64,000 nt of DNA, taken from assembly GCA_030427805.1 (NCBI GenBank), contig JAUICP010000002.1:124001-188000 (forward strand). The letters are read 5' to 3'. Below, in pieces: positions 25,002-41,653 of the stretch. Within the stretch, counting starts at the first letter, position 1. Each line of letters starts with the position of its first letter. The position numbers were made by a program, and so were the translations under genes. Under the pieces are notes generated by a model. It was not told where the DNA came from and did not search any database. It was given only the letters and a program-made list of their open reading frames with translations. This DNA comes from Bdellovibrionia bacterium (GTDB lineage Bacteria > Bdellovibrionota > Bdellovibrionia > Bdellovibrionales > JAGQZY01).

Positions 25002-25035
25002 CGCAAGTCAAACGCATTAACCAAGGGGATATAAA

Positions 25036-25314: not shown

Positions 25315-26855
25315 ATCTAAAGATTGGAATGCTTGTGGTGGCAGGAGTTGTCGCCGCAGTCCTTCTAAGCCAGGTTGGAAAAATGAACAGTGGATCAAAT
25401 AACAATATTTTGAAAGTGGCATTTCCCACCGAAAGAGCGGTCTCAGATTATGAGCCGACTCGAATTCATGTGGACAACGAGTATATCTTTCTTGAAACGA
25501 TATACAGCCCACTTGTGGATCTGTCTGATGACAAAGGTGCTCCGATTGCATCTGTAGCGAAAGAGCACTTTTGGAAGGGTGATGAGTTACATTTTGTCAT
25601 CCGAGATGACCTTGAGACTATTGATGGCAAACAGATTACTGTTGAGGACGTGATCGTATCATTGAAGAGAGTTCTAATTCTCGCAGAGAATACTCACGGT
25701 GATTTCAAGAGCATTGTTTGCCCGGATGTTCATTTGAAAAATATCGAAGATGACTGTCCTGGGATTTCAAGTGAAGATAACACTCTTGTCTTGAAACCTG
25801 CAGCCAAGAGAGATTTTTTGGTGAGTATGCTGGCATCGATTGACTTTGCCATTATACCAAAGAGCTCAATTGACCCAAAAAATCTTAAAGTCATTGATTA
25901 CCGAAATACCTCAGGCCCTTACTATGTAGATGAGGACAGAGGCAAGGGAAACATCATCTTAAAGAAAAATCCCTCTCACTTTTTGGCAACTGATGATATT
26001 GCAGAAGAAATTCAACTTGTCCCGACCTACGGCCTTGAAAAGTCAACGGTCATCGAGAAGTTTAGCTCCGGAGAGGTTGATTTTATAACGACGGTTGAGG
26101 GTTTGGATATTGGCGATGCCAAAACCTTGAAGAATGATAGTATCAACATCCACGAGACTATGGATATTAAAATCAAAGTGGCTTTCGTGACTGAAAAGGG
26201 AATGAGCCGCTTGTCTAGTGATCAGCGACTTTCCTTTGCCAAGTCTCTCCAGAGCACTTTCCACGGTACTTTCGCTGACGGCGAGATCTTCAAAGCATCC
26301 AATGAATACTTCTTGCCCTTTAGTGATGGTGGATTTTCTAAGGATCAAGAAATGAAACTGGCTAAAGTGATTGAAGATGCCGAACCCGATGGATCTGGCA
26401 AAGGAATCAGCCTAGGTATTTTTCATTCGGGCACGACGACCGTGGATAACTATATTGAGGCTTCAAAAAAGCAGATGCCAGACTTGAAGGTAGAGAGCAC
26501 AAAGGTTCTTCCTGCGTTCGGAAAACCTGAGGGCTATGAAGAGCCTGACTACATTTTGGTGTCCACCGACTCAGGATCTTTAGAAAATATCAGCCTATTG
26601 AGCTACTCCATGAGCCTTGGCATCTTTGGCTACTCAAGGGCCGAAGGCAAAGCCTGGGTCGAAGATTATATGGACACTGAGGACCGAATTGAACGACTAA
26701 AGAAGCTGAAACAAATGCACCTTGAAACCTTGAGCGAAGGACGACTGATTCCATTGATCAGCACATCGTATGTGGCGATTGCGAATCGTAATTGGAAACC
26801 CCAGCTCTCAGAACTTTTTGCGAATTGCCCGTTATGGAAGATAAAAAAGAACTAG
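25296..26855 (+). CDS. membrane-anchored OppA/DppA-like peptide-binding protein
   Basis: This 519-residue protein has the class-C extracellular solute-binding fold (SBP_bac_5). Family marks are the IYSPLVDL segment, HFVIRDDLE.DGKQITVEDVIVSLKR, TSGPYYVDE and the late ISLLSYSMSLG region. Instead of a lipobox it has an uncleaved-looking N-terminal helix (about 8-27, LKIGMLVVAGVVAAVLLSQVG), so it is probably tethered to the inner membrane. No ABC permease or ATPase gene is nearby, which argues for a sensory or capture role rather than import. It lies between the small exported protein and the YcaO-like gene, overlapping both. Confidence 0.82.
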   Translation: MRGWSLNLKIGMLVVAGVVAAVLLSQVGKMNSGSNNNILKVAFPTERAVSDYEPTRIHVDNEYIFLETIYSPLVDLSDDKGAPIASVAKEHFWKGDELHFVIRDDLETIDGKQITVEDVIVSLKRVLILAENTHGDFKSIVCPDVHLKNIEDDCPGISSEDNTLVLKPAAKRDFLVSMLASIDFAIIPKSSIDPKNLKVIDYRNTSGPYYVDEDRGKGNIILKKNPSHFLATDDIAEEIQLVPTYGLEKSTVIEKFSSGEVDFITTVEGLDIGDAKTLKNDSINIHETMDIKIKVAFVTEKGMSRLSSDQRLSFAKSLQSTFHGTFADGEIFKASNEYFLPFSDGGFSKDQEMKLAKVIEDAEPDGSGKGISLGIFHSGTTTVDNYIEASKKQMPDLKVESTKVLPAFGKPEGYEEPDYILVSTDSGSLENISLLSYSMSLGIFGYSRAEGKAWVEDYMDTEDRIERLKKLKQMHLETLSEGRLIPLISTSYVAIANRNWKPQLSELFANCPLWKIKKN

Positions 26856-27796
26856 CCCACTGGCTGCTACAAAATAAGGCAGAGCTCGAGCTAAGAGTTG
26901 AAAGGCTCCACTGGATCAATGAGTGGTTGCCGGGGATGCATGACATCCGGGTAATCATCTATCGAGGGGGACAAAGTTTTGTTGGACGCGGGATTGCCGA
27001 CAATCCGGACTTGGCTTTGACAAAGGCTGGAGCCGAAGCCATTGAGAGAGCTTACTGCTTATTGAACGGTATCTCATCATGTGGTGTTGCCGTTCATACG
27101 GATGAGAGCTTGGCTCAGCTCAATGCTAAGCTTGAGTTGATTGAAAGAGACCTTTTCTTTTGTCACTACCTCACAAGGACTCCATTTTATGAAGCTTCCG
27201 ATGAAACAGGCTATCTAAACCGACTTCATGAACAGTTTCGGTCCATAGAGGTGAGTTTTAATCTGATGAAGATGAGAAGATGTGACGACGTCTTCTCATT
27301 CATCGCTCTAGCCAGTGGCGAAAAGTCGGGCCTAGTTGTTGGTCTAGGATGCTCACTGGATAAGAAGATAGCTCAACTGAAAGCCATTTGTGAGTGCGTG
27401 ATGAACTCTGTGGCGGCGATTGAGGGAAATGTAGCTCCGATGTCCTTGAATGAGTTCAGCGCTGGTGAAGGAAGCCCTGAGGTACATCGACGGCTGTACC
27501 TCGGCGAGCAGGGATTGCGAGTTGAGAACTCTTGGATGCTTGAGGCTTCATTGGGTCAGGACAAAGAAATTCAGCCTCTCCAAAGAGAATTTCAATACGA
27601 AAATCTAACTATTGCTGATGATATTTTAAGCAGCAGTCCTTTGACAGCAAAAAGATGCCTATCAGAGAACCTGCAAAAGACCTTCTTTGGTTCGACGGTG
27701 GCGGAGCGCCTAAACCTTAGGAGACTCGCTGAGTTTATGGGAACAGAAAGTATTGATGAGGAAGATTTAAATTTTCTACCTCATCCCTTGGGATAA
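26834..27796 (+). CDS. YcaO-like protein
   Basis: This is a 320-residue protein from ATG 26834; a TTG at 26792 is in frame but lies deep in the upstream gene. YcaO signatures appear in order: GRGIADNPDLALTK then AEAIERAY at about 51-74, KLELIERDLFFCH at about 99-111, GLVVGLGCSLDKKIAQL and ICECV at about 172-195, and a proline-containing C-terminus LPHPLG. YcaO enzymes use ATP to activate peptide-backbone amides, making azolines, thioamides or amidines. It is shorter than the usual 380-450 residues and has no partner E1-like or TfuA gene here. It overlaps the peptide-binding gene by 22 bases. Catalysis is therefore inferred; loss of activity is possible. Confidence 0.72.
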   Translation: MEDKKELAHWLLQNKAELELRVERLHWINEWLPGMHDIRVIIYRGGQSFVGRGIADNPDLALTKAGAEAIERAYCLLNGISSCGVAVHTDESLAQLNAKLELIERDLFFCHYLTRTPFYEASDETGYLNRLHEQFRSIEVSFNLMKMRRCDDVFSFIALASGEKSGLVVGLGCSLDKKIAQLKAICECVMNSVAAIEGNVAPMSLNEFSAGEGSPEVHRRLYLGEQGLRVENSWMLEASLGQDKEIQPLQREFQYENLTIADDILSSSPLTAKRCLSENLQKTFFGSTVAERLNLRRLAEFMGTESIDEEDLNFLPHPLG

Positions 27797-27798
27797 AC

Positions 27799-29355
27799 AT
27801 GAAAACGAACGAGCTAAAGAAAATTTCAAGAAGGTTTACGCGAAGTATTTTCGTCGTTCAGGCCGTGACATTCTTTTTTCTCGTGCTGGTAATGATTTTT
27901 TCAAGCTATATGCACAAGTCCGATCTTGCCGACCAAGTCGCAAGATCTATCGAGGGGAAAATAAAACGAGCCGACAAAAGAGAGGTCATAAACCTCTTGT
28001 CAGATGCAGTCGCCAACGATTTTGCTGCGGCTGAATTGTATGATCATGTTGGCCAACATGTCGTAACCTTTCCAAATCAATTCAGAAGAGAGACCGGGCA
28101 TTTAACCAAAGTTTACCGTGCCATTTTTCTGGTGCCTTACCGAAAGCAGGTGTTCTACGATCGTGACGAAAAAGATGCAGCGGCTACAATTGTCTTTCAT
28201 TTCGGAGTGTTTGGATTGTTACCGTTTGCACTTGGGATTTTCTTACTAGGTCTGCTTGCGACATCGCCATTTTTTAGGAGGTATAAGAACCTCCTAGTTC
28301 AGAGCTTTGAAAAAGACTCTGTCGAAAAGCAAAACCAAGTTATTACAGAGCTGGCAAAACAAGTCCGGCATGATTACAAGTCCCCACTGACAGCGATCAA
28401 GTCGGTTATCGACAAGTCAAAAAATTTGTCCGATCAGGAGCGCAGAGCACTTACAGTCTCCTATAATAGCATGATGTCTATGCTGAGTGATTTATCCAAC
28501 GAAAGCATCCAAGAAGCGATGCGAGTTGGTCATCTAAAAAAGAAGGTAAAATCGCTCACCCATATATATTCGACTCTGAGAGATGTCTTTGATGAAAAGC
28601 TTGCGAGGCTTGAGTATGGAAGCCAAAAACAGATCCAGCTTGTTTGCTCAGACGACGATAAACGAGGATACATCCTTATCGATGAAACTGAACTCAGGCG
28701 AGTGATTTCAAATGTGACCGAGAACGCTCTCGACGCTTTGGACAGCTCTGGCCAAGTTATCATGCAGGTTGATATTACTGGGACAGAGCTGACGATCCGA
28801 ATCTCAGACAATGGAAAAGGTATCTCGAAAGACAATTTGGAAAAGATTGGTGAGAAAGGGTTTACCTTTGGAAAAGTTGGTGGAGAGGGCCTGGGGCTAT
28901 ACTCAGCTATCAAGAAGGTTGAGAGATGGGGCGGCCAGTTAAAAATCGAGTCCGAGGACGGAAAAGGAACTGAAGTTTTGATTTCACTGCCCAAAGCCGT
29001 CAAGCCAACTTGGTCAAAAGCTGAGGTCGACTTTAGCGATATCGAGACTGCTGTTGTGCTTGATGATGACAAAGCTGTTCATGAGTTATGGAAGGAAAGA
29101 GTTCCTTCAGATGTCAGCCTCAAGTGCTTTGAAGATGGCGAGGAACTTCTTGATTTGGTGGACAGAAAAGACGACAAAGTCCTTTATATTTTGGACTTCA
29201 ACCTTAAGGGGCAAAGATATAACGGTCTTCAAGTTGCTGAAAAATTAGGCCATGCAAAGCGCAAGTACATGGTGAGCGGAAGCTTCCATGATCCAATGGT
29301 GCAGCGCCAGTGCAAGGCTATGGGATTGGGCTTAATCCCGAAAACGATATTGTAA
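27799..29355 (+). CDS. hybrid histidine kinase with C-terminal receiver
   Basis: This 518-residue inner-membrane kinase has TM1 at about 17-36, a periplasmic segment of about 95 residues, and TM2 at about 131-154. It then has the phosphoacceptor His191 in RHDYKSPLTAIK and ATPase boxes: N (NVTENALDAL), G1 (ISDNGKGIS) and G2 (GGEGLGLYSA). A receiver domain at about 412-518 has DDD and acceptor Asp in YILDFNLKG and ends PKTIL. It starts 3 bases after the YcaO-like gene. It should sense a periplasmic ligand, perhaps presented by the peptide-binding protein, and signal to the sigma-54 activator. Confidence 0.9.
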   Translation: MKTNELKKISRRFTRSIFVVQAVTFFFLVLVMIFSSYMHKSDLADQVARSIEGKIKRADKREVINLLSDAVANDFAAAELYDHVGQHVVTFPNQFRRETGHLTKVYRAIFLVPYRKQVFYDRDEKDAAATIVFHFGVFGLLPFALGIFLLGLLATSPFFRRYKNLLVQSFEKDSVEKQNQVITELAKQVRHDYKSPLTAIKSVIDKSKNLSDQERRALTVSYNSMMSMLSDLSNESIQEAMRVGHLKKKVKSLTHIYSTLRDVFDEKLARLEYGSQKQIQLVCSDDDKRGYILIDETELRRVISNVTENALDALDSSGQVIMQVDITGTELTIRISDNGKGISKDNLEKIGEKGFTFGKVGGEGLGLYSAIKKVERWGGQLKIESEDGKGTEVLISLPKAVKPTWSKAEVDFSDIETAVVLDDDKAVHELWKERVPSDVSLKCFEDGEELLDLVDRKDDKVLYILDFNLKGQRYNGLQVAEKLGHAKRKYMVSGSFHDPMVQRQCKAMGLGLIPKTIL

Positions 29356-29369
29356 AACATGGGTGCCTT

Positions 29370-29762
29370 GTGAATACAGAAGAATTCGAAAAATTGAAGA
29401 ACTTAGAAGAATCGTTGTGGAGGACAGAAACACGGTTCGACCTTGATTTTCAAGAAAGAGTTTTTGCTGAAGATTTTTTTGAATTCGGGCGATCCGGCCG
29501 AGTCTACAGTCGAGAAGAATGTCTAAGCACTGAGACTCAAGAAATCCGAACGAAACTACCTCTGGAAAAGTTTGAAGTAAGAAAAATTGATGAGAACACG
29601 GTGCTTGTCACTTATGTCAGCGAGGTTCAATACGATGAGATTGAGCGGGCCAATAGATCTTCTTTGTGGACCAGATATGGCGCTGAATGGAAAATCCGAT
29701 TTCATCAGGGAACTCCTATAGTTGATAAAACAGTGGGAAGTCATGCCTGGTCAACTCTTTGA
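29370..29762 (+). CDS. DUF4440/SnoaL-like small protein
   Basis: This 131-residue protein is from GTG 29370, placed 15 bases after the kinase stop; the frame is open further upstream inside the kinase gene. The NTF2-like DUF4440 pattern is clear: VFAEDFFEFGRSGRVYSREE, then VLVTYVSEV, then WKIRFHQGTP. Such cone-shaped domains bind small hydrophobic ligands or act as simple isomerases or hydrolases. The last bases overlap the methyltransferase gene. The role here is unknown. Confidence 0.65.
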   Translation: MNTEEFEKLKNLEESLWRTETRFDLDFQERVFAEDFFEFGRSGRVYSREECLSTETQEIRTKLPLEKFEVRKIDENTVLVTYVSEVQYDEIERANRSSLWTRYGAEWKIRFHQGTPIVDKTVGSHAWSTL

Positions 29763-30471
29763 AAACCCTAAATTGGTCGCAGTTTATGATCATTTCGATG
29801 GTGAGAGAGGTGATCTAGCTCACTACTTGTCGATGGTTGATGAGTTTGGTGCAAAGTCGGTCATTGATATCGGCTCAGGCACAGGTTGTTTTGCTCATTT
29901 GCTAGAAAAAGCTGGCATAAATGTCGTTGCTGTCGAGCCTGCAAAGGCTTCTCTTGAGTGTGCGAGATCCAAGGCTGAAGACAGTAAAATTCAATGGATA
30001 CATGGCACGGCGGAAGACTTGCCGGACTCTTGCGGGGGTTTTGCGGTTATGACTGGGAATGTCGCCCAGGTTTTTACAGACGAAAGGGATTGGAACAACA
30101 CTTTAAGTTCTGTCTTCAGAGCTCTAGACCGAGGAGGCTATTTTGTTTTTGAAGTGAGAGATCCTTCAAAAAAGGCATGGGAGAGTTGGAATAAAGAATA
30201 CACTCATGCCATACAGGATGTAGCTGACCTCGGTGAGGTCGAGTGCTGGTGTGAAGTTTTGAGTGTATCTGGAGGTCTCGTGACCTTTCGATGGACTTAT
30301 AATTTCAAAGCATCCGGTGAAACTTTAGCTTCAGACTCAACACTCATTTTCCGCGAAAAGGATGAGATCCAAAAGTCTTTGAAACAGGCAGGGTTCTCTG
30401 TTCTTGAAGTGAGGGATGCACCTGACAGGCCTGGCAAGGAGTTCGTATTCGTGGCGAGGAAGATGGCATGA
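29743..30471 (+). CDS. class I SAM-dependent methyltransferase
   Basis: This 242-residue protein is from ATG 29743 (MPGQLFENPKLVAVYDHF), with GGGAAG just upstream. SAM-binding motif I is VIDIGSGTGCFAHLL, then VVAVEPA, and a post-motif-I block IQWIHGTAEDLP. It resembles small-molecule methyltransferases rather than rRNA or protein ones. It overlaps the upstream gene by 20 bases and the next one by ATGA. Substrate unknown. Confidence 0.8.
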   Translation: MPGQLFENPKLVAVYDHFDGERGDLAHYLSMVDEFGAKSVIDIGSGTGCFAHLLEKAGINVVAVEPAKASLECARSKAEDSKIQWIHGTAEDLPDSCGGFAVMTGNVAQVFTDERDWNNTLSSVFRALDRGGYFVFEVRDPSKKAWESWNKEYTHAIQDVADLGEVECWCEVLSVSGGLVTFRWTYNFKASGETLASDSTLIFREKDEIQKSLKQAGFSVLEVRDAPDRPGKEFVFVARKMA

Positions 30472-31538
30472 ATAATCATCGAGAGATCAGCAGATCAATT
30501 CCTGAGGAGATCAAAGGCGATGGGCTGTGCTTGAGAAAGCACCACCCTGATCTCGCTCCTAAAATGTATAGCTGCATTGATAGTGACCGAGATAGACTTC
30601 GACAGTTTTTGCCTTGGGTGGACAGTACTACGTCCGCTGAGGATTCCCGCGAGTACATTATTAGCTGTCAAAAACGCTGGGAGTCTGGAGACTATTTTGA
30701 TTTTGGTATCTTTAGATCTGAAGATGACTGCTACATGGGTAACATCGGGGTTCATTCGATATCGTGGGAAAACCATAGATGTGAAATTGGTTACTGGATC
30801 TTTGGAGAATTTGAAGGCCAAGGAGTCATGAGCAGATCAATCAGGGCTTTAGAAAAGACTCTGTTTGAACTTGGGTTCCATAGGGTTGAAATCACTTTAG
30901 ATCCACGAAACGAAAGGTCTGAGGCCGTTCCTAAGAGGCTTGGATATGTATTTGAAGGGGTCTTAAGAGAATCGGCATTTGAGAGTGGTGAACATAGAAA
31001 CATGGCTGTCTATTCAAAGTTATCCCAAGAATACGGCAGTTCACCAGCAAAGCCTAAGATGTTTGAAGTCAGAATGGCCACTGAGTCTGATGCCAGATGC
31101 ATTCTTGAAGCACACCACGACTCTGTTCACAAAATTGCTATTTCTGATTACGGTATAGAGGTAGCCCGTTCGTGGTCTCCAGAAGTCAATGAGGAAAGGG
31201 TCAATCAATATCTTGAGAGCTCTTTTCTTGAAGAAACAACGGTCGTTGCAATTTCTGATGGAGTGATTTGTGGATTCGGGTCCATCGTGGATAAAGATTC
31301 AGAGCTTCGAGCCGTTTATGTAAAAGACCAATTTGGTGGCCTCGGAGTAGGCTCAAGAATTCTCTCTCGGCTAGAGTCAATTGCAAGAGCAAGAGGCTTG
31401 AAGAGCCTCTCGATGGATTCATCTGTAACAGCCGAGAGATTTTACTTAAAGCATGGATATTCGGTAGTAGAGCGAGGTGAGCATACTTTGAGTTCAGGTG
31501 CTAAAATGTCATGTTTTAAAATGAGGAAAGAGCTGTGA
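30468..31538 (+). CDS. tandem GNAT acetyltransferase (fusion of two domains)
   Basis: This is a 356-residue protein made of two GNAT domains. The first (about 15-180) is RimJ/RimL-like: LRKHHPDLAPKM, CEIGYWIFGEFEGQGVMSRS, DPRNERSEAVPKRLGYVFEG. The second (about 195-356) is a general GNAT with LRAVYVKDQFGGLGVGSRIL and AERFYLKHGYSVVERG; its acetyl-CoA loop is FGGLGVGS. The two domains are complete, so this is a true fusion. It probably acetylates small amines or peptides. It is coupled on both sides (ATGA at its start, GTGA at its end). Confidence 0.82.
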   Translation: MNNHREISRSIPEEIKGDGLCLRKHHPDLAPKMYSCIDSDRDRLRQFLPWVDSTTSAEDSREYIISCQKRWESGDYFDFGIFRSEDDCYMGNIGVHSISWENHRCEIGYWIFGEFEGQGVMSRSIRALEKTLFELGFHRVEITLDPRNERSEAVPKRLGYVFEGVLRESAFESGEHRNMAVYSKLSQEYGSSPAKPKMFEVRMATESDARCILEAHHDSVHKIAISDYGIEVARSWSPEVNEERVNQYLESSFLEETTVVAISDGVICGFGSIVDKDSELRAVYVKDQFGGLGVGSRILSRLESIARARGLKSLSMDSSVTAERFYLKHGYSVVERGEHTLSSGAKMSCFKMRKEL

Positions 31539-32443
31539 AAGAGACTTCTGACTTAATTGAATTAGAGGCGGAGAAAAACCTAGCGAGGTCAGTGCTTAAA
31601 GTCCCTTCAGAAGAAAGACTCCTTCTCATAGAATCTGGATGGACCAGCCGAGTGTATTTAGCGAGACAGGGCGAGCTGGTTTGTAAGTTCCCGAGATACC
31701 AAGATGTCAAAAAAGAGTACGAAGTAGAAATAGAGATTTTGAGAGCATTGGCGTCTGTTGATCTACCCGTGCAAGTTCCGGAGGTGTTAGAAGTTGGCAA
31801 TGACTATCGCTATCTTGCCTATTACGGTGTTAAAGGTGATGTCTTAAAGTTTCAGAATATTGAGAGTGACGATAAGAAACTTATTGGGCAGGCAATCGGA
31901 CGGTTCATCAAAACTTTGAGAGAGAAGAACCTTCGCATGGGTCACGACATGGCACTTGATAAAGAAATCTCTGAGTACTTAGAGAAATATGAACTTGGAA
32001 AACCCCATTGGGCTAGAGTTCTGTCCATAGAGGAATATGAGGCTCTCGACAATTTCATGACTGGTGAATATGAAATCAGAATGAAGAGCCTCGGTTTCAA
32101 GGGAGAATGTTCTCATGGAGACTTAGGTTTCTGGAACATTCTATTCGATAAGGAGTCTGGATCGATTAGGGTTATCGATTTTGGTGATTATGGTATTTAC
32201 GACGAGTCGATTGATTTCGTGGGTTTGAGAGATCCTGAGATACTAAATGAAGCACTCGAACCGTTTGGAGACACCGAAGAGCTGAGAGCCAAGATACACT
32301 TGCGACAAAGCCTTCTGCCTGTCTTGGAGATGCCATACTATGCCAGCAAGAGTCTAGAGAACGAGATTGTTCAACTCACAGATGCTCTTCGCAAGGGTCT
32401 TTTGAGCGAGTTAAAGACTGCTTTGGAGGCTAAAAATGACTAG
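31535..32443 (+). CDS. APH-family phosphotransferase
   Basis: This 302-residue protein starts at a GTG overlapping the previous stop. It has the aminoglycoside/choline-kinase fold: nucleotide loop ESGWTSRVYLARQGELVCKF, catalytic loop SHGDLGFWNILF at about 193-204, and the metal-binding VIDFGDYGIYDESIDF. The enzyme phosphorylates a hydroxyl on a small molecule, such as an antibiotic or sugar. The pattern GDLGFWN and FGD is typical of APH/macrolide-kinase-like proteins. Resistance is possible but not shown. Confidence 0.8.
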   Translation: MKETSDLIELEAEKNLARSVLKVPSEERLLLIESGWTSRVYLARQGELVCKFPRYQDVKKEYEVEIEILRALASVDLPVQVPEVLEVGNDYRYLAYYGVKGDVLKFQNIESDDKKLIGQAIGRFIKTLREKNLRMGHDMALDKEISEYLEKYELGKPHWARVLSIEEYEALDNFMTGEYEIRMKSLGFKGECSHGDLGFWNILFDKESGSIRVIDFGDYGIYDESIDFVGLRDPEILNEALEPFGDTEELRAKIHLRQSLLPVLEMPYYASKSLENEIVQLTDALRKGLLSELKTALEAKND

Positions 32444-33173
32444 ACCAAGACCTCGTGAAGTCGCAGAAAAATTGATGAAAACTCGATACAAGGGAGCAAA
32501 TATCGCATTCTTGGCGGGATCTGTCGTTAATGGTGAAGGCACTTTTTACTCAGATTTAGACATAGTTGTTATTTATGGCAAACTTGATCAAGCCTACCGA
32601 GAATCATTTATCTTTGATGAATGGCCCATTGAAGCTTTTGTCCACGATTCAGAAACATTGAAGTATTTTTTTGAGGAGGTAGATGCCAAGAGTGGAGCGC
32701 CTTCGTTAATGAATATGGTTCTATATTCTGAACCAATCCCTGAGGCTTCTATGATGGTCGAAGAGCTTAGACAGCTCGCTCAAGAGGTTCTTTTAAAAGG
32801 TCCTCCAGCGTGGGACAAAAATCTCGTTGATAGAGCAAGGTACGAACTGACAGACTTGTTAGATGACCTGAGAGAACCAAGAGACTCGTCAGAGAAAATG
32901 GCCACCCTCTGTGCGCTATACCCAAAAGTAGCGAATTTTTACCTGAGGAGTTCCGGCAAGTGGTCAGGCTCAAATAAAGGTATTATTAGGCAACTAAAGT
33001 CAGAATATCCTGAATTTTTCAAGGATTTCGATAGAAGGTTCCAGTCGGCCTTTGGGGATAGTAGTACATCGGGAATTATTGTTCTTGTTGAGAGCATACT
33101 CGCACCATTTGGTGGCCCACTTTTTGACGGCTACAAACTTGATGCACCTAGAGACTGGAGAAAAGAATTATGA
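32436..33173 (+). CDS. nucleotidyltransferase-fold protein
   Basis: This is a 245-residue protein with the polymerase-beta-type nucleotidyltransferase signature LAGSVVNGEGTFYSDLDIVV, that is GS, then D-x-D about a dozen residues on. A helical C-terminal half follows, as in aminoglycoside nucleotidyltransferases. It overlaps both flanking genes (8 and 4 bases). It might adenylylate the same compound handled by the neighbouring kinase. Other members transfer AMP to proteins, so the substrate is open. Confidence 0.72.
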   Translation: MTRPRPREVAEKLMKTRYKGANIAFLAGSVVNGEGTFYSDLDIVVIYGKLDQAYRESFIFDEWPIEAFVHDSETLKYFFEEVDAKSGAPSLMNMVLYSEPIPEASMMVEELRQLAQEVLLKGPPAWDKNLVDRARYELTDLLDDLREPRDSSEKMATLCALYPKVANFYLRSSGKWSGSNKGIIRQLKSEYPEFFKDFDRRFQSAFGDSSTSGIIVLVESILAPFGGPLFDGYKLDAPRDWRKEL

Positions 33174-33790
33174 CGGATCAATGGACTACAGATTGGGACA
33201 GTAGATTTAAAGATGGAGATACTCCGTGGGAAGAAGATGGACCCTGTCCAGGGCTCGCTCGAATTGCTAGCGAATATCTTCAACCCGGATCAAGCCTCAT
33301 GGAGGTAGGGTGCGGGTTAGGCACAAATGCAATTTGGCTTGCTCAGCAAGGATTCTCTGTCACCGCTACCGATATTTCAAGTGAGGCGATCCAATTAGCG
33401 AGAAGCAGAATGCCTATTAAATCGCCAAGTCTTGAATTTGAAGTCGTCAATTTTATAGATGATACCATCGATCAAAGATATGACGTCTTATTTGATAAAG
33501 GGTGTTTGCATAGTTTCAATACTGATCACGGCCTAGAGGCTTTCGTAGAAAAAGCATCTTCGATACTAGAACCAGGATCAATCTGGGTAAGCATCTCTGG
33601 AAATGCCGACACCCTCGAAGATCTAGATGAAAGAAGAGAATTTGGGTTTCCGAGATTGTCAGCAACAAAAGTTGTTTCATTGGTAGAGCCTTATTTTGAA
33701 GTCCTTGAAATAAGATCGTCAAAGTTTGGCTTAAAAAATGATTTTAAATCGTGGGAATGTGTTTTCCGTAGAAGGGCTGAAACTCTATGA
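33170..33790 (+). CDS. TehB/thiopurine-type SAM methyltransferase
   Basis: This 206-residue protein opens with WTTDWDSRFKDGDTPWEED, the characteristic W..R...G.TPWE start of TehB/TPMT-like methyltransferases. Motif I is LMEVGCGLGTNAIWLAQQG and the acidic post-I residue is VTATDIS. Related enzymes methylate thiopurines, tellurite or selenite and other small toxic compounds. It starts in the previous stop codon (ATGA). It ends 30 bases before the TPR gene. Confidence 0.78.
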   Translation: MTDQWTTDWDSRFKDGDTPWEEDGPCPGLARIASEYLQPGSSLMEVGCGLGTNAIWLAQQGFSVTATDISSEAIQLARSRMPIKSPSLEFEVVNFIDDTIDQRYDVLFDKGCLHSFNTDHGLEAFVEKASSILEPGSIWVSISGNADTLEDLDERREFGFPRLSATKVVSLVEPYFEVLEIRSSKFGLKNDFKSWECVFRRRAETL

Positions 33791-33820
33791 ATGACAATGG
33801 GAGTTTAAAGCAAGAGGTAC

Positions 33821-35317
33821 ATGGGCTATAACCTCAACTATTCATTCGACGAAAATTTACGTGACGTCCCCGAGAACCCTAAGGACGTGCGCAAGTTTAT
33901 TCAAAGTCAAATGAGCAAGTTAAAAGCAGTCAAAGATCCTGTGGGCCGAGTGAAGATTCTGGAAAAGCTCGGCTCATTTTCTAGAATGATTGGAGAGCTT
34001 GACGAGGCTCAAGAGTTTCTTGGTGAAGCCTTGGAACTCATTGGAAGAAATGACCTCGGAATTGAGTTGTGGGTCGCCAACGGAATAAGGCTTGCCCATG
34101 TTTTTCAATGGCAAGGAAACTATGATGTAGCGCGAGAGATGTTTTTGGACATCATGGAAATGTGTGAAGACAACAAGGAAGTGGCAGATTACCTGCATTT
34201 TACTGTTCAACACCTGGGCAAGTACTACTTTGATTTGGGAGAATACGAAGAGGCTTTTCAGTGTTTTGAGGACGCTTTAGAAATGAGGAAAGAGATCGGA
34301 GATATCGATCTGATTGAGAGTTCTCAGTTTGCTCTAAAGGTCACGGAGGCAAAGCTGAAAGAATCTTACAACGTCGTTCAGTTCCCTAGTAATCAATTTC
34401 AAGGCGATGGCTTAAAGAGCCCAAAGGATATTTTGGAAATGGTCAAAATGAGAGTCGAGGGCCAAGACGACCTGACTCTCGAAGATCTCAATGAAGAACT
34501 CAACCGAGTGACGTTCAATCAGAACAATATGGCGAAGGCTCCTTTTCTCGGATTGAGTCCGGCGGATATGCATAATATTCTTTACACACCATTTAGGCCA
34601 GACAATGAGATCTTCACCATAAAGATCGATTCAAACAAAGACCTCGATAACGTGCCTCTCGTTCAACACGCCCTGTTCTTGCTGGAAAAGATTCACGAAA
34701 AGAAACAGCTTAAAGCGACTCAAAAAGGAAATTTCCCAAGATCACTGGTTCTCGAAGTATACTCCGAGTTTTTCTCGAACAGTCGCTTTTCATTTAAGCC
34801 CAACAAAGAAGATGATTTGCCAGAGCTGACAAGATTGAAGCACCTTCTCGATATGGCTGGGTTACTCAAAAAAAGAAGCAACAAGTTCTCAGTCACAAAG
34901 AAGGGTGAAAAGATCCTCAGTCAAAATGATAAAAGAAGCCTTTTTAGCCTGATCCTAGACCCATTGTTCAATAAGTGGAACTGGGGATACACTGATGCCT
35001 ACTCTGAGCTGATGCTTATTCAATCAAGTGCGATCTTCAATATTTATTTACTCCACAAGAAAGCACAAGACTGGATTCATAGTGATGAATTGGGGAAATT
35101 ATATCTTGAGGCGTTTCCCGCGCTGGTCAACGAGGCTCGGGGCTACTTTGGCCCGGAGAAAGAAATCATAGACTGCTTTGAAACTCGGTTTTTAAATCGG
35201 TTTTGCCTACCGCTTGGTTTACTTGATCTGAAAGACGCGAGTGACGACTCAATTTTGAGTAAGGATCGTCACTACCGCGTGAGTGATTTTTTTAAAAACA
35301 GCATTGTCTTCCATTAG
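33821..35317 (+). CDS. TPR-containing protein with C-terminal winged-helix-like domain
   Basis: This is 498 residues, with ribosome site AAGAGG. Residues about 35-180 hold at least three TPR-like helical pairs (GELDEAQEFLGEALELIG, GNYDVAREMFLDIMEMC, GEYEEAFQCFEDALEMR). The C-terminal half contains PLVQHALFLLEKIHEK, then LKATQKGNFPRSLV, LKHLLDMAGLLKK and FSVTKKGEKIL, similar to a domain found next to plasmid-type and SEC-C proteins, with a wing-like end. It might be a signalling or transcription adaptor. It is less tightly packed than its neighbours. Confidence 0.6.
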   Translation: MGYNLNYSFDENLRDVPENPKDVRKFIQSQMSKLKAVKDPVGRVKILEKLGSFSRMIGELDEAQEFLGEALELIGRNDLGIELWVANGIRLAHVFQWQGNYDVAREMFLDIMEMCEDNKEVADYLHFTVQHLGKYYFDLGEYEEAFQCFEDALEMRKEIGDIDLIESSQFALKVTEAKLKESYNVVQFPSNQFQGDGLKSPKDILEMVKMRVEGQDDLTLEDLNEELNRVTFNQNNMAKAPFLGLSPADMHNILYTPFRPDNEIFTIKIDSNKDLDNVPLVQHALFLLEKIHEKKQLKATQKGNFPRSLVLEVYSEFFSNSRFSFKPNKEDDLPELTRLKHLLDMAGLLKKRSNKFSVTKKGEKILSQNDKRSLFSLILDPLFNKWNWGYTDAYSELMLIQSSAIFNIYLLHKKAQDWIHSDELGKLYLEAFPALVNEARGYFGPEKEIIDCFETRFLNRFCLPLGLLDLKDASDDSILSKDRHYRVSDFFKNSIVFH

Positions 35318-35352
35318 GAAGCTCTGCTCTTTAACTTGTATGGGTATTGAAG

Positions 35353-36039
35353 ATGGATAGAGACAATTTACTTAGAACTTTATCAAAGGCTCTAGCGTCC
35401 CGAGTCTCGAATGACGTACTGTTGGTCGGAGTAGATGGAATTGATGGCGCAGGAAAGACAACTTTAGCAGACGAGCTCGTACCGTTTCTCAAGGAGCTAG
35501 GAGTCGATGTCAAGAGAGCTTCTATAGATGGATTTCATAATCCAAGAGAATACAGAGTTCGACAGGGGAATCTTTCGCCCGAGGGCTATTATCAGGACTC
35601 TTTTGATTATGATTTTTTGACCAATAATTTCTTTGGCCCGATAAAATCAGATAAGCTTCCACTTGAACTACCAAAAGCAAAGTTTGACTGGAAAAGTGAC
35701 TCTGAGGTCGGAGAAGAGTTTGTGCATATTGAACCTGGGACAGTCATCTTATTCGAAGGTGTGTTTCTTTTTCGTCCACAATTGAGAGACTATTGGGACT
35801 TTAAAATATTTGTTGATATACCATTCGAGCTATCATTGGAGAGAGGCTTAAAGAGGGACTCTCATTTATTGGGAGGGGGAAAGCAGACAAGAGAAAAATA
35901 TCTTAAAAGATATATCCCTGGCCAGAAATTGTATTTTAGTGATTGCGACCCAATATCTTTTGCCGACTTAGTAATTGATAACTCATCTCCTCAAAGTCCG
36001 GAACTTTTAAAAGGAGATTTAGTTGAATATGAAAGCTGA
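35353..36039 (+). CDS. uridine-kinase-like P-loop kinase
   Basis: This 228-residue protein is from ATG 35353 (MDRDNLLRTL). Walker A is GVDGIDGAGKTTLADEL. KRASIDGFHNPREYR corresponds to the acceptor-binding region. FEGVFLFRPQLRDYWDF and the Arg-rich lid SLERGLKRD follow. This is the phosphoribulokinase/uridine kinase group. It may phosphorylate a nucleoside or a related small molecule. A DUF-level function cannot be told, and in this operon it could act in modification of the same metabolite as the APH proteins. Confidence 0.78.
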   Translation: MDRDNLLRTLSKALASRVSNDVLLVGVDGIDGAGKTTLADELVPFLKELGVDVKRASIDGFHNPREYRVRQGNLSPEGYYQDSFDYDFLTNNFFGPIKSDKLPLELPKAKFDWKSDSEVGEEFVHIEPGTVILFEGVFLFRPQLRDYWDFKIFVDIPFELSLERGLKRDSHLLGGGKQTREKYLKRYIPGQKLYFSDCDPISFADLVIDNSSPQSPELLKGDLVEYES

Positions 36040-36051
36040 CTGGAAACCATT

Positions 36052-36879
36052 GTGAGAAAACTCTGTGATATCGATAGCCTAGCTTCTAAATGGTCCCTTA
36101 AAATCACAAAGAGAATTACTCAAACTCCCACCTGTGAAGTCTTTGAGGTCGAGGGAGGTTCCGAGCTCCTCGTTTTGAAGCTTTACTCAGACCTGGGCTG
36201 GGAAGACGAAAAGGGGTCGATTTCAGTATTGAACGCTTGGAATGGAAATGGAGCCGTAAAAGTTGTCGATCACCTCGAAAAAGCTCTTCTCATGGAAAAA
36301 CTTGAGGAGCCAAATCTGTATTCGTTTTCTGCTTCAAGGCAAGAGAGCCAAGCTAGTGAAATATTTTGTGGAATTATTGAGAAGATCCACAGTGTAGATC
36401 TAGGCCTGTTGTCCGAGCCGGTTAGAAGTACAAATGAGATCATAAAGCCTCTCCTTCAATTTGATGTGGCCGAGCAGCTTCAGCCAATGTTTGAGAAAGC
36501 AAAAAGAATCGCCGAGGAGCTGATAAGCTCGTCCGGAGAGATGGTCATTTTGCATGGAGATTTGCACCACGAAAATGTACTCAGACGCTCTAATGGCGAG
36601 TATGTCTGTTTCGATCCCAAGGGGTATATCGGCGATCCAGCTTATGAGATCGCGACGATTCTCAAGAACCCTTGGCACTATCCTGAGATTTCTGAATCGG
36701 AAGAGATGTGTCTCGAGAGGGCCGAGTACTTCGCAAAGACCTTAGACTTTGACTTGGGAAGAGTCCTCAAGTTTGCCTTTGTCCACATGGGATTGAGTGT
36801 AATTTGGTCGTACTCCGATGGGTTTGAGAAATATCAACATCAGCTGGCAATCATGAAAATTCTTGAGGCGCATGTTTAG
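36052..36879 (+). CDS. APH(6)-like phosphotransferase (streptomycin/hydroxyurea kinase type)
   Basis: This 275-residue protein is from GTG 36052, 12 bases after the previous stop. The catalytic loop is ILHGDLHHENVLR; the metal site is VCFDPKGYIGDPAYEIATIL; and a KNPWH motif follows directly. The DPKG..GDPAYE..T.L.NP pattern is typical of the APH(6)/hydroxyurea phosphotransferase group rather than of APH(3'). The predicted reaction is ATP-dependent O-phosphorylation of a small molecule. It is the second APH-fold kinase in this operon and is not closely similar to the first. Confidence 0.8.
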   Translation: MRKLCDIDSLASKWSLKITKRITQTPTCEVFEVEGGSELLVLKLYSDLGWEDEKGSISVLNAWNGNGAVKVVDHLEKALLMEKLEEPNLYSFSASRQESQASEIFCGIIEKIHSVDLGLLSEPVRSTNEIIKPLLQFDVAEQLQPMFEKAKRIAEELISSSGEMVILHGDLHHENVLRRSNGEYVCFDPKGYIGDPAYEIATILKNPWHYPEISESEEMCLERAEYFAKTLDFDLGRVLKFAFVHMGLSVIWSYSDGFEKYQHQLAIMKILEAHV

Positions 36880-36961
36880 ACCACGGGAAATATCAAATAA
36901 CGGCACAAATTATCAAAAACAACTCTTCATCACAGCGTAAATTCCTTTTGAGGAGATCGAC

Positions 36962-37597
36962 TTGAGCTATTTAAGATCAGTGGAAACAGCTATTTCATAT
37001 GTTGAAGAACACATCAAAGGTTATGATCTTGACATTACCTCCGTTTGTAAAGCGACCGGAGTTTCGAAATGGTATTTCCAACGGATTTTTAAAGGGGTAA
37101 CCGGGGACTCTTTAGGTGACTATATAAGAAAGAGGCGGATCAGTCAGGCAGCATTGGAGTTGGTAGAATCCGATCGACCTATAATTCATTTGGCCATTGA
37201 TTATGGGTTTGAAAGCCAGGAAGCTTTTACGCGGTCTTTTAAAAGTCACTTTGAGACGACTCCTGCCAAGTTCAGAAAAAATCGAGATCCTAAAATGTTT
37301 ATGCATAAATTCCAGTTAACAAACGAATTTTTACGACATTTAAAGGAGCGATTAGACATGACACCTGTAATTGAAGACGCAAGAGAATTGAAGCTCGTTG
37401 GTTTTGTGGAACCATTTCGAGGAGTTTTTGATGAAAACCCAAACAACCACGAGGTTATTCCGAAACTCTGGCAGGAATTTGTAAAAAGGCAAGTCGAGAT
37501 ACCCAACAATGTTGAGGGAAAAAGTACTTGTAGGTTCTTGTTTAGGATAAATTTATCTGGGCAGATAGTACGCATGAATAGTAAATTATACTTCTAA
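36962..37597 (+). CDS. AraC-type regulator, C-terminally truncated
   Basis: This is 211 residues from TTG 36962, with GAGGAG seven bases upstream. Two AraC HTH motifs are present: LDITSVCKATGVSKWYFQRI and IIHLAIDYGFESQEAFTRSF, followed by FRKNR at about 110. The C-terminal GyrI-like effector domain begins (ELKLVGFVEPFRGVF) but breaks off after about 80 residues, where intact homologues have about 150. The last 20 residues (SGQIVRMNSKLYF) look unlike the family. I think it is a degraded gene, although the DNA-binding part is intact. Confidence 0.65.
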   Translation: MSYLRSVETAISYVEEHIKGYDLDITSVCKATGVSKWYFQRIFKGVTGDSLGDYIRKRRISQAALELVESDRPIIHLAIDYGFESQEAFTRSFKSHFETTPAKFRKNRDPKMFMHKFQLTNEFLRHLKERLDMTPVIEDARELKLVGFVEPFRGVFDENPNNHEVIPKLWQEFVKRQVEIPNNVEGKSTCRFLFRINLSGQIVRMNSKLYF

Positions 37598-37693
37598 GGA
37601 AGGTTTAGCAAATAAAATCCAAAAAGTACGGTGGGAATCAAATAATTCTGTATCTGGTCTTTGCGAATCGAAAGATATTCAAGAGTATAACCA

Positions 37694-39025
37694 TTAATTT
37701 CCCTTCTCCTTACTTCTTTCTTTTATGAGACTCTCATAAATTTCTAAAACCAATGGGTACAAATTATCTGCAATTAGCTCGGAACCCAACAAAGAAGTAT
37801 GTCCCCAACTACCAGCAAAGCGATCCACAAAAAGCTCATCGTAAGCTATTCTAGTCAAAGCTTCAGAAAAGTTTTCTCGATTTTCAACAAAACGAATATT
37901 ATGTCTTTCATCAGAAGTGTTAAGATCAAATCGTCCAAGATGCTCTGTAAGGCTTGTCGTCGGATAACTCATTAGAACGTGAACAGCACCCTTTTTAACA
38001 ATCGTAGAATGTATTTTCTTTAAATTCGCATAAACTTTGTTTTGTAAAAACTGCTTCTCCCTAAGGTAGCCATATTTGTCGATCAATGACTTAAACTTAA
38101 GTCCGTAATAATTTAAGTTCTCTCTATTGATAATCAGAGACAGTGTAACCGAATCTAAATAAGAAGGAGGAGATTCAAATATTTTATCTAACAGCTCCTT
38201 TCTTAAATATTTGTGACGTCCAGGCTCGATAAATCTAAATCGATGAATCACATAAAAGTAATTTTGAATGATCCTATTCTCATTCGGAAAAGTCCTATAA
38301 GCAGACATGATGTGTTTTATACAAAATTCTAAATCTGGAAGCGATGGAGTGGTATTTATAGTGCAATTGGAGGTCAATCGCATTTGCAGATAGGCCTTTT
38401 CTTCTCGACTCAAATTTTCAAGCTCTTTATCTATCAAACTATATTCTTTGAATCTAAATAATTCGGCTATTTTCCATACTTTTTTATTTATAGATTTGGA
38501 AAAACTTTTTTCGATTATACTCGGACTATTAAATTCTTTAAAATAGTCTCGAAACCAACAAACTACTTTTAAAACTTTCAATGACAAATTTTGACAAAAT
38601 TCTGTGTGAAACGAAAAATGAGAAATCAAATACGAGTCATTAATTCCAATCATTGATATTACAACGTCAGGATTATACTTATCTAACCACATGGAAAGAT
38701 TTTTTAGGATTTCTGCAGAATTCGTTCCTGCTTTTGCTTCTGTAAAAATATTTATAGGAAGCTTTTCTCTTTTAAACCGCTCTTGTAGCAAATTAGACCA
38801 ACTAGGATGGAGCTGCCCTTTCGCAAAAAAATTAGTTGTTGTAGATTCTCCGATAGCTAAAATATTCAATCCCTCTTCAGAAGACCAATGTGTTGAATTT
38901 AAATCATCGTCTATCTTAAGGATCAGCATACCAAAGATAGTCAAAACTATTTCGACAATCGCAACTGAAGTTATAAATATCATAAAAGTAAAGAGTGTTT
39001 TTCTCCAAATTCCATATTTTAGCAA
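37694..39025 (-). CDS. membrane-anchored SGNH/GDSL-type hydrolase
   Basis: This 443-residue protein has one N-terminal helix (about 12-38) and a periplasmic SGNH domain: block I ILAIGESTTT with the nucleophile Ser, block III MIGINDSYL with Asn, and block V DRFAGSWGHTSLLGSELIAD containing the Asp-x-x-His pair. A helical insertion of about 150 residues interrupts the domain. Such proteins act as O-acetyl esterases or transferases on surface polysaccharide. The DNA is visibly richer in A/T than its neighbours and the gene is in opposite orientation, so it may be a later insertion. Confidence 0.72.
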   Translation of the reverse strand: MLKYGIWRKTLFTFMIFITSVAIVEIVLTIFGMLILKIDDDLNSTHWSSEEGLNILAIGESTTTNFFAKGQLHPSWSNLLQERFKREKLPINIFTEAKAGTNSAEILKNLSMWLDKYNPDVVISMIGINDSYLISHFSFHTEFCQNLSLKVLKVVCWFRDYFKEFNSPSIIEKSFSKSINKKVWKIAELFRFKEYSLIDKELENLSREEKAYLQMRLTSNCTINTTPSLPDLEFCIKHIMSAYRTFPNENRIIQNYFYVIHRFRFIEPGRHKYLRKELLDKIFESPPSYLDSVTLSLIINRENLNYYGLKFKSLIDKYGYLREKQFLQNKVYANLKKIHSTIVKKGAVHVLMSYPTTSLTEHLGRFDLNTSDERHNIRFVENRENFSEALTRIAYDELFVDRFAGSWGHTSLLGSELIADNLYPLVLEIYESLIKERSKEKGN

Positions 39026-39308
39026 TTGACTACTCTCCAGTAACTAGATGGTTTTCAGAAAAAAAATTCATTAAGAGAATTTGACGTAAATAAGCAAACT
39101 GTATCGTATCCATACCGATTTTGAATTCGATTGTAGCGATAACTCAAATTTTTATCAAGGTAATTTTAGGCATGAACTGAAAAAAACAGAATATTATTAA
39201 TTTAATACAGCCAATTTATTTTAGTGAACAACTTCTGAATCAAATCCTCCATGAAAGGAACAGGGGCTAGTTCATGGAGGTATCAAAGGTTTTGCCCGGA
39301 GGTTTAAA

Positions 39309-40241
39309 ATGAGAACGCTACAAAGAGATCTGTTTGATAGAGCAGAAGAATTTATTTTTCGTGAGGGCCGACCACTTGAACAGAGGCTATTCGATTTTCA
39401 TTTTGGAGCAGCGGAAATAAATCCTGTGATTGGTGAGCTGGTAAAGTTTCAGAATAAAGATGGAGGCTTTGGGAATGCTTTGGAGCCAGATCTTCGGACT
39501 CCTCTGTCATCAGCCTTGACCACATCTGTAGCCCTGAGAACTATGGTTGAGGTTGGCGTAAGTCCAGATTCTCCGGTCTTGGAAAGGACAATCTCTTACC
39601 TCTTGAAGACAGTGGACCGGGAGAATTGGCGATGGATTATAGCTCCTGAGGGCGGACAAGACAGTCCTCATGCTCCTTGGTGGGGAGGAGATGACATTGC
39701 CTCATCGTTTCGTGGATGTTTTGCGAATCCATCAGCAGAGATCACAGGCCTCTTGTTGAATTACAAGCAGCTAGTGCCTGCTGAAATTTTGGGTAACTTG
39801 CTTGAAAGACTGCGTTCTTACCTGACAGAGGCCGTTGAGACGAAAGATGCGTTTCAAATGCACGATTTGATGTGCTATCTCGCTCTGGCTCAATCGAAGA
39901 ACTTAGATGAAAAGTATGTCGATGAAATTCGTCCGTTGCTGATGAATGCAGCTGATTCAATCGTTGAAAAGGACAAAACCAAGTGGAGTGATTACTCGGC
40001 CAGACCCCTCTGGCTCTGTGATCATCCCGATTCAATTTTATATCCGCTTCTAGAAGAGCACGTGAACGAGAACTTAGATTTTGAGATTGAAACTCAAAAA
40101 CAAGATGGGTCTTGGTCGCCCTTTTGGGACTGGGGAGGTAACTATAGTGATGATTGGAAGACTGCTTCAAAAGAGTGGTCCTCTCATTTGGCAATTAACA
40201 ACCTAATCAAATTTAGAAATTTTGATCGATTGAGTGCTTAG
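39309..40241 (+). CDS. alpha/alpha-toroid protein (prenyltransferase/squalene-cyclase-like)
   Basis: This 310-residue protein resembles toroid repeat proteins: KFQNKDGGFGNALEPDL (QxxDGGFG), a second KQDGSWSPFWDWGG motif near the C-terminus, and helical pairs between. It lacks the DxDD acid motif of true squalene cyclases, so enzyme activity is uncertain. There is no signal peptide. Position after a 283-base AT-rich gap and before the glyoxalase-like gene suggests a separate small transcription unit of cargo. Function unknown. Confidence 0.6.
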   Translation: MRTLQRDLFDRAEEFIFREGRPLEQRLFDFHFGAAEINPVIGELVKFQNKDGGFGNALEPDLRTPLSSALTTSVALRTMVEVGVSPDSPVLERTISYLLKTVDRENWRWIIAPEGGQDSPHAPWWGGDDIASSFRGCFANPSAEITGLLLNYKQLVPAEILGNLLERLRSYLTEAVETKDAFQMHDLMCYLALAQSKNLDEKYVDEIRPLLMNAADSIVEKDKTKWSDYSARPLWLCDHPDSILYPLLEEHVNENLDFEIETQKQDGSWSPFWDWGGNYSDDWKTASKEWSSHLAINNLIKFRNFDRLSA

Positions 40242-40312
40242 AATAGTCTTTTTCACAATTCTTATTCTAGCTGTGATTGGATCGCTCTACGGAGCCAACG
40301 AGGAGAATTTCA

Positions 40313-40741
40313 ATGTCAAAAATTCCAGCTCGACTAAACTTGGTCACATTGGCTGTATCAGATCTCAAAAAAATGAGCACATTCTACGACAAGCTTGGGT
40401 GGGAGCGTTCAAAAGGAAGCAACGAAGGGTATATTGCCTACCGGACGGGAGGCGCCATTCTAGCATTGTGGCTATCGAGTAATTTTGAGAAGTGTGGACT
40501 AATAAAAGAATCTCAAAGTTTCAATGGTGTCATGCTGGCGATAAATGTCGAAAGCGCTGATCTCGTAGATGCAGCAATTGAGACGGCTCAAAAAGCAGGG
40601 GCTACCGATGTTAGCGAAGCAAAAGATACTGCTTGGGGTGGACGCTCCGGAGGATTCAAAGATCCCGAGGGAAACATATGGGAAATTACTTGGGCCGAGG
40701 GCACAAGCTTTGACGATAGAGGTGGGTTGATTTACCCGTAA
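40313..40741 (+). CDS. glyoxalase/bleomycin-resistance-like (VOC) protein
   Basis: This is 142 residues from ATG 40313, preceded by GAGGAG. It is a VOC-fold protein: LNLVTLAVSDLKKMSTFYDK with the opening beta strand, a second half-repeat, and GGFKDPEGNIWEITWA at the end with the usual terminal Glu metal ligand. The first metal position is Thr instead of His in LNLVTLAV, so it may lack metal and act as a binding protein, as bleomycin-binding proteins do. It could be resistance cargo. Confidence 0.75.
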   Translation: MSKIPARLNLVTLAVSDLKKMSTFYDKLGWERSKGSNEGYIAYRTGGAILALWLSSNFEKCGLIKESQSFNGVMLAINVESADLVDAAIETAQKAGATDVSEAKDTAWGGRSGGFKDPEGNIWEITWAEGTSFDDRGGLIYP

Positions 40742-40756
40742 CTTTACCCAAACCTA

Positions 40757-41637: not shown

Positions 41638-41653
41638 AAAAATCTCCTTGTTG

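What the first reader, a model, noticed from the sequence alone, without database searches (positions are those of the whole stretch)
29370..36879. Translationally coupled array of drug-modifying enzyme families
Eight enzymes or binding proteins of small-molecule-modifying type (DUF4440, two methyltransferases, tandem GNAT, two different APH kinases, nucleotidyltransferase, uridine-kinase-like) are packed with 4-20 base overlaps or short gaps. Acetyl-, phospho-, nucleotidyl- and methyl-transfer in one operon is either a multi-drug inactivation set or a tailoring pathway for one compound, possibly the signal handled by the YcaO unit.
Basis: partly seen in the sequence, partly recalled or inferred. 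Interest (0 to 1): 0.65.

Follow-up and report, generated by a model that had tools for sequence, protein, structure and literature searches.

The report
Mobile detox-enzyme operon in predatory-type bacteria
A 39-kb self-transferring DNA element in a relative of the predatory bacterium Bdellovibrio carries nine tightly packed genes, eight of which look like drug- or toxin-modifying enzymes, placed directly behind a peptide-signalling gene set that may switch them on; most likely the nine are a mobile protection kit, not a pathway that builds one compound.

Summary
It is cargo of a 39-kb ICE-like element (3417-42430): CcrB-like serine recombinase at tRNA-Pro, conjugation genes, matching att cores. 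A MAG of another family carries the array at 91-92% DNA identity; every gene compared has dN/dS of 0.13-0.21, so they were kept as functional proteins. A sister species has a related ICE in the same tRNA with other detox-type cargo. Elsewhere in the phylum the array genes occur singly, with different nearest relatives, and GC3 varies within the array. This favours a stack of separate resistance/detox genes over one tailoring pathway; no gene reaches a named resistance-family cut-off and no substrate is shown. The array starts 14 nt behind a sigma54-promoter operon (activator, secreted small peptide, peptide-binding protein, YcaO, sensor kinase), so that circuit may drive it, but more than 30 similar modules lack an array. 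The module family, with YcaO or HExxH peptide hydroxylase and a matching precursor-like ORF, is the most novel thing seen.

The parts
29370..29762 (+). DUF4440 (SnoaL-like fold) protein, GTG start 14 nt after the kinase stop
   Evidence: PF14534 47.4 bits; gap
29743..30471 (+). class I SAM methyltransferase MT1 (ATG at 29743)
   Evidence: PF13649 50.3 bits; 49.6% identical lone gene in G026; dN/dS 0.19 against G053
30468..31538 (+). tandem GNAT: RimL/MccE-type domain plus GCN5-type domain in one protein
   Evidence: PF13302 86 bits, PF00583 79 bits; PDB relatives 1nsl, RimL and MccE; dN/dS 0.14
31535..32443 (+). APH-fold kinase, nearest solved relatives APH(2'')
   Evidence: PF01636 61.9 bits; phmmer E 1.5e-7 to APH(2'')-Id; HGDLGFWN and DFGD motifs intact
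32436..33173 (+). nucleotidyltransferase with GSVV...SDLD motif
   Evidence: PF01909 20.0 bits, below its cut-off; profile of 11 relatives finds kanamycin nucleotidyltransferase at E 0.001; relatives fused to GNAT or NUDIX
33170..33790 (+). class I SAM methyltransferase MT2 (TPMT / thiol methyltransferase / TehB-like)
   Evidence: dN/dS 0.16 over 125 codons
33821..35317 (+).
   Evidence: PF13424; 50-51% identical full-length relatives in G167 (directly behind a GNAT) and G187 (behind type I restriction genes)
35353..36039 (+). uridine-kinase / PRK07667-type P-loop kinase
   Evidence: NF005807 98 bits against cut-off 221; paralogue 58% identical elsewhere in the genome as a lone gene
36052..36879 (+). 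APH(6)/hydroxyurea-kinase-type phosphotransferase
   Evidence: PF04655 112 bits; NF012171 139 bits against cut-off 325; HGDLHHEN motif conserved
36962..37597 (+). AraC-family regulator, truncated (211 aa; 291 aa in G053, with Cass2/GyrI-like drug-binding domain)
39309..40241 (+). squalene-cyclase-like repeat protein, also in the G053 element
   Evidence: weak Pfam match; homology and dN/dS
40313..40741 (+). VOC/glyoxalase-like protein by its sequence, also in the G053 element (92.7% identical)
   Evidence: sequence; homology; dN/dS 0.13. The window protein itself was not scanned against Pfam
23538..23552 (+). sigma54 -24/-12 promoter element TGGCACCCCAATTGC
   Evidence: perfect match, 0.14 expected by chance in the window; also in G053 and G001; such sites upstream of most activator-bearing modules
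23601..25001 (+). NtrC-type sigma54 response regulator
   Evidence: PF00158 214 bits, PF00072 50 bits
25036..25314 (+). 92-aa small ORF with secretion-type start, ending SSDVICVGGA; putative modified-peptide precursor
   Evidence: position and comparison with ORFs of other modules; no family match
25296..26855 (+). SBP_bac_5 peptide-binding protein
   Evidence: PF00496 36 bits
26834..27796 (+). short divergent YcaO
   Evidence: PF02624 45.6 bits
27799..29355 (+). membrane sensor histidine kinase with receiver-like C-terminus
   Evidence: PF02518 79 bits; receiver only weakly matched
3417..42430 (.). ICE-like element carrying all of the above; att cores CCGACCA at 3418 (tRNA-Pro 3' end) and 42424
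   Evidence: junctions with G001 and G053
3431..5208 (-). large serine recombinase, CcrB-like
   Evidence: PF00239 87 bits, NF047343 160 bits
7821..18215 (-). conjugation genes: FtsK-like coupling protein, TrbI, CagX/VirB9-like, TraC/VirB4, TrbC pilin

Best explanation
The array is a mobile cargo operon of a conjugative element. It is a stack of independently acquired resistance/detoxification-type enzymes, each able to modify a different kind of small molecule (acetyl-, phospho-, nucleotidyl- and methyl-transfer), not the steps of one pathway. Shown here: gene content and junctions, mobile context, sharing with another family, purifying selection, scattered relatives. Inferred: that the enzymes inactivate toxic compounds, that the genes form one transcript, and that transcription comes at least partly from the sigma54 promoter at 23538 through the signalling operon in front.
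For: ICE context: recombinase, conjugation genes, tRNA-Pro, matching att cores. Array DNA 91-92% identical in G053, a genome of another family (Bdellovibrionia MAG). dN/dS 0.13-0.21 for the seven array genes compared and three neighbours. Sister species G001 has a related ICE in the same tRNA with other detox-type cargo: SMR efflux, GNAT, isochorismatase, SnoaL-like. Nearest relatives of the array genes sit in different genomes and never together. GC3 ranges from 0.33 to 0.50 within the array. G026 has a different packed set (OCD, GNAT, NUDIX, APH6-type). AraC neighbour with drug-binding domain in G053 (Cass2 binds cationic drugs, PMC3048380).
Against: No protein reaches the cut-off of a named resistance family, so substrates are unknown. 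The tight overlaps, kept in G053 where the contig allows, could also fit a concerted pathway. The G053 contigs are fragments of a low-coverage assembly, and its nucleotidyltransferase start carries a 44-nt deletion. The TPR protein and the uridine-kinase type are not classical resistance genes. Dispersed relatives do not exclude recruitment into one pathway.
Confidence: 0.62

Rival explanations
1. The array is a tailoring pathway: methyl-, acetyl-, phospho- and nucleotidyl-transfers act in turn on one small molecule or sugar made by the host or taken from prey.
For: Overlapping genes, the same block in G053, mixed transfer chemistry, a nearby squalene-cyclase-like gene.
Against: No scaffold-forming enzyme and no transporter in the array; relatives occur singly with different nearest relatives; mobile cargo position; a related ICE has other detox-type genes in its cargo.
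Confidence: 0.13
2. The array modifies or degrades the peptide signal made by the YcaO unit directly upstream, as its tailoring or self-immunity set.
For: 14-nt gap to the kinase gene, one unbroken same-strand run behind a sigma54 promoter; MT1 has a weak match to the cypemycin N-methyltransferase.
Against: More than 30 other YcaO or HExxH modules have no such array; relatives of array genes occur far from such modules.
Confidence: 0.08
3. The array is an anti-phage or other defence operon.
For: ICE cargo often holds defence genes; the G001 element has an SbcC-like ATPase similar to Lamassu/Septu ATPases.
Against: Only generic methyltransferase and TPR matches in PADLOC; no nuclease or toxin-like effector among the nine genes.
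Confidence: 0.05
4. A sub-variant of the best explanation: the array works as a detoxification stack, but from its own promoter and regulator (drug-responsive AraC downstream), with no link to the signalling operon. (This overlaps with the best explanation in function and differs only in control.)
For: AraC with Cass2/GyrI-like domain next to the array in G053; modules elsewhere end at the kinase or the activator.
Against: No sigma70-like site in the 14-nt gap and no terminator at the junction; AraC is truncated in this genome.
Confidence: 0.3

Closest known systems
Resistance cargo regions of ICEs and of CcrB-type cassettes
   Same: Conjugation genes, site-specific recombinase at a tRNA, swapped cargo of drug- and toxin-modifying genes
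   Different: Cargo enzymes are remote from clinical families; packed as one overlapping operon behind a peptide-signalling operon; host is a Bdellovibrio relative; mobilisation gene only weakly recognised
Integron gene-cassette arrays (for example Vibrio superintegrons)
   Same: The same kinds of families (GNAT, APH, methyltransferase, VOC, Cass2-type binding domains) strung together on mobile DNA
   Different: Overlapping reading frames leave no room for attC sites at five of eight junctions; recombinase at the element end is a serine recombinase
APH(6)-I streptomycin kinases
   Same: PF04655 fold family and HGDLHHEN motif
   Different: 139 bits against a cut-off of 325; below 30% identity to plasmid copies
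APH(2'') aminoglycoside kinases
   Same: APH fold and catalytic motifs; nearest solved structures
   Different: 51 bits against cut-offs of 475 and more; about 29% identity over two thirds of the protein
PosC/PflC HEXXH RiPP enzymes with PosA/PflA precursors (PMC12636437)
   Same: Some sister signalling modules have an HExxH enzyme and a small ORF ending IFD..Q...ARMD, like the PosA core IGVAAIFDTQQQQ-ARMD
   Different: Here with secretion-type leader, peptide-binding protein, histidine kinase and sigma54 activator, often on ICEs; a search of the paper's main text for 'histidine kinase' and 'substrate-binding' found neither term

Membership tests
Integrative and conjugative element | Site-specific recombinase at one end | tested here: met
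   PF00239 87 bits, PF07508 45 bits, next to tRNA-Pro
Integrative and conjugative element | Type IV secretion genes and coupling protein | tested here: met
   TraC/VirB4 70 bits, FtsK-like 85 bits, TrbI 40 bits, TrbC 35 bits, all over cut-off
Integrative and conjugative element | Relaxase | tested here: inconclusive
   Only PF13814 Replic_Relax at 20.5 bits, cut-off 25.3
Integrative and conjugative element | Defined ends with att sites | tested here: met
   CCGACCA cores at 3418 and 42424; same in G001 at 8647 and 50216; G053 left end at the same core
Integrative and conjugative element | Transfer between lineages | tested here: met
   88-95% DNA identity of array and backbone pieces in a genome of another family; indirect, MAG cross-binning not fully excluded
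APH(6)-I (NF012171) | Curated equivalog cut-off 325 bits | tested here: not met
   138.9 bits
APH(2'') families | Curated cut-offs 475-625 bits | tested here: not met
   at most 50.6 bits
ANT(3'') AadA | Curated cut-off 595.5 bits | tested here: not met
   17.3 bits
APH superfamily (PF01636 / PF04655) | Pfam gathering score and catalytic HGDxxxxN | tested here: met
   61.9 bits over 23.2 and 112 bits over 27; motifs intact
Integron cassette array | attC site between genes | tested here: not met
   Genes overlap by 4-20 nt at five junctions; other gaps at most 35 nt
Drug-inactivating function | Shift in susceptibility on expression | not testable with these tools
   needs the bench
RiPP-type signalling module (upstream operon) | Modification enzyme, adjacent precursor-like ORF, peptide-binding protein and sensor kinase together | tested here: met
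   Window module complete. All 20 YcaO loci fetched have SBP and HK in the cluster, as do at least 12 of 20 HExxH loci
RiPP-type signalling module (upstream operon) | The peptide is modified, exported and sensed | not testable with these tools
   needs co-expression, mass spectrometry and reporter assays

The most novel reading that the evidence does not exclude
The array is the output arm of an ICE-borne peptide-signalling circuit: a secreted, YcaO-modified peptide is captured by the SBP and sensed by the kinase, the NtrC-type activator then fires the sigma54 promoter at 23538, and the nine-gene protection operon is transcribed together with its own signalling genes, so that chemical protection is switched on when element carriers are near each other. 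The circuit itself would be a new family of RiPP-type pheromone systems with exchangeable YcaO or HExxH enzymes, spread over the Bdellovibrio order and often next to conjugation genes.
Probability: 0.25. Interest if true: 0.82.

Novelty: new variant of a known kind. Interest (0 to 1): 0.52.

Why it matters
If right, relatives of predatory bacteria exchange protection genes on ICEs, and the array is a ready set of uncharacterised drug-modifying enzymes, some with relatives fused to GNAT or NUDIX domains. The signalling operon in front makes an open question testable: whether Gram-negative mobile elements use modified ribosomal peptides to time cargo expression or transfer.

Tried and rejected
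Integron array: no space for attC. Phage cargo: one viral-contig scan with the APH2-type protein gave no relative, and PHROGs gave only generic matches. Defence system: PADLOC gave only generic methyltransferase and TPR hits. Same gene order elsewhere: only G053; a genome-wide scan with the tandem GNAT found single-gene relatives, several in Bdellovibrio relatives, none with the other array genes beside it except the G053 contig; plasmid searches with three array proteins found only remote relatives. Module-array link elsewhere: about 33 modules examined, none followed by a comparable array. sigma70 and terminator scans of the operon were at chance level. No fitting paper was found by searches combining Bdellovibrio with YcaO, or YcaO with pheromone and two-component system. 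Structure prediction was not used.
Full report
What is there. The window lies in a 4.5-Mb genome (contig 1, 124001-188000). Nine same-strand genes fill 29370-36879. Five junctions overlap by 4-20 nt and the other three gaps are 30, 35 and 12 nt. Catalytic motifs are intact in the phosphotransferases, the nucleotidyltransferase, the P-loop kinase and the methyltransferases (read from the sequences).

Mobile context. A CcrB-like large serine recombinase lies beside tRNA-Pro, followed by FtsK-like, TrbI, VirB9-like, TraC/VirB4 and pilin genes. Comparison with the sister species G001 fixes the ends: homology to its chromosome stops at 3434 and resumes near 42408; both elements share the core CCGACCA at each end (window 3418 and 42424; G001 8647 and 50216), and the G053 left end starts at the same core. 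The element is 39.0 kb. The G001 element has the same backbone (VirB4 78%, VirB6 75% identical protein) but other cargo, including SMR efflux, GNAT, isochorismatase and SnoaL-like genes.

Exchange and selection. G053, of another family, has the array at 91-92% DNA identity in two contigs, backbone pieces at 88-95%, and the same squalene-cyclase-like and VOC-like genes farther right, but a different gene set between. dN/dS is 0.13-0.21 for each of ten genes compared, so the proteins were maintained. The G053 nucleotidyltransferase start has a 44-nt deletion; the contig title gives a coverage of 1.0, so this may be an assembly fault.

Origin of the genes. Relatives of the nucleotidyltransferase (38-49% identity, 17 genomes besides G053, and a paralogue in the own genome), APH6-type kinase (44-45% at best besides G053), MT1 (49.6%), tandem GNAT N-domain (51% at best), TPR protein (51%) and P-loop kinase (58% paralogue in the same genome) lie in different genomes and not side by side. 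The APH2-type kinase has no close relative in 369 genomes of the phylum except G053. GC3 runs from 0.33 to 0.50. Some relatives of the nucleotidyltransferase are fused to GNAT or NUDIX domains, and G026 has another packed set of such enzymes. This looks like gene-by-gene accretion in a mobile cargo region (inference).

What it does. By family the enzymes transfer acetyl, phosphate, nucleotide and methyl groups. The nearest solved relatives include APH(2''), kanamycin nucleotidyltransferase (weak, profile E 0.001), RimL/MccE and thiol methyltransferases. None reaches a curated resistance-family cut-off. The AraC neighbour has in G053 a Cass2/GyrI-like domain, a type shown to bind cationic drugs (PMC3048380); here it is truncated. 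A set of separate detoxification functions is the best reading; the substrate of each is unknown.

How it may be switched on. Directly upstream, 14 nt from the array, ends an operon of NtrC-type activator, 92-aa small ORF with a secretion-type start, SBP, YcaO and sensor kinase. A perfect sigma54 element (23538-23552) lies 48 nt before the activator start and is conserved in G053 and G001. From 23601 to 36879 no gap exceeds 35 nt, and promoter or terminator scans show nothing above chance inside. Read-through into the array is plausible but not shown.

The signalling modules. Searches of 141 genomes of the order and 40 fetched loci show the module far beyond this element: all 20 short-YcaO loci and at least 12 of 20 HExxH loci have SBP and kinase beside them, several with VirB4 near by. 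A 60-170-aa ORF with a secretion-type start sits before the SBP or the HExxH gene in most of them; in some loci (for example L287, L288, L292, L296, L297, L298) the script printed no convincing one. C-termini go with the enzyme: Cys motifs with YcaO, IFD..Q...ARMD-like ends with some HExxH genes, close to the PosA core IGVAAIFDTQQQQ-ARMD whose HEXXH enzyme was studied in PMC12636437. Other HExxH modules (L124, L315, L324) have longer ORFs without that ending. In modules with an activator, sigma54-like sites (up to 2 mismatches) lie upstream of the first gene in most cases, against a background of 0.11 per 670 nt. None of about 33 other modules is followed by a comparable array.

Limits. No expression data; MAG fragments; secretion signals judged by eye; the clustering estimate is rough.

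Noticed in passing
window 23538-29355; L133; L124; L287-L326: Order-wide module of sigma54 activator, precursor-like small ORF with secretion-type start, peptide SBP, YcaO or aKG-HExxH enzyme and histidine kinase, often beside conjugation genes; precursor C-terminus type tends to go with the enzyme type.
   Followed up: partly
L308 6021-6308; L312 5762-6046: Small ORFs before HExxH genes end IFDSHQFAQARMDFVRQ and IFDNTQFATARMDFVRQ, like the PosA core that ends IFDTQQQQARMD in PMC12636437.
   Followed up: partly
L133 6936-7250 (same genome, contig 7): Second YcaO module of the genome, next to a TraG/VirD4-like gene; its small ORF ends in two similar Cys-rich repeats SSDTQPCEVCMIP and SSFDTQPCVGCVVP.
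   Followed up: partly
L128 12570-13007 (G053 contig 97): Left end of the same element adjoins a second, diverged conjugation-gene region on one contig, perhaps two elements in tandem.
   Followed up: no
window 36962-39025: AraC gene truncated and followed by a GDSL-like gene of low GC (0.32) where G053 has GNAT, VOC, HD and a second AraC gene: a cargo hot spot.
   Followed up: partly
L124 16851-19283 (G001 element): SbcC-like ATPase with matches to Lamassu LmuB and Septu PtuA models: possible defence cargo in the sister element.
   Followed up: no
L080, L082, L090: Nucleotidyltransferase relatives fused to NUDIX or GNAT domains: possible bifunctional modifying enzymes.
   Followed up: partly
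window 59504-59998: A second DUF4440 protein outside the element, with a hydrophobic C-terminal segment.
   Followed up: no
window 42514, 44157, 44204: 22-nt intergenic repeat GACGGTCCCAGGGATCGAGTCT near the right end of the element, also near the right end of the G001 element.
   Followed up: no
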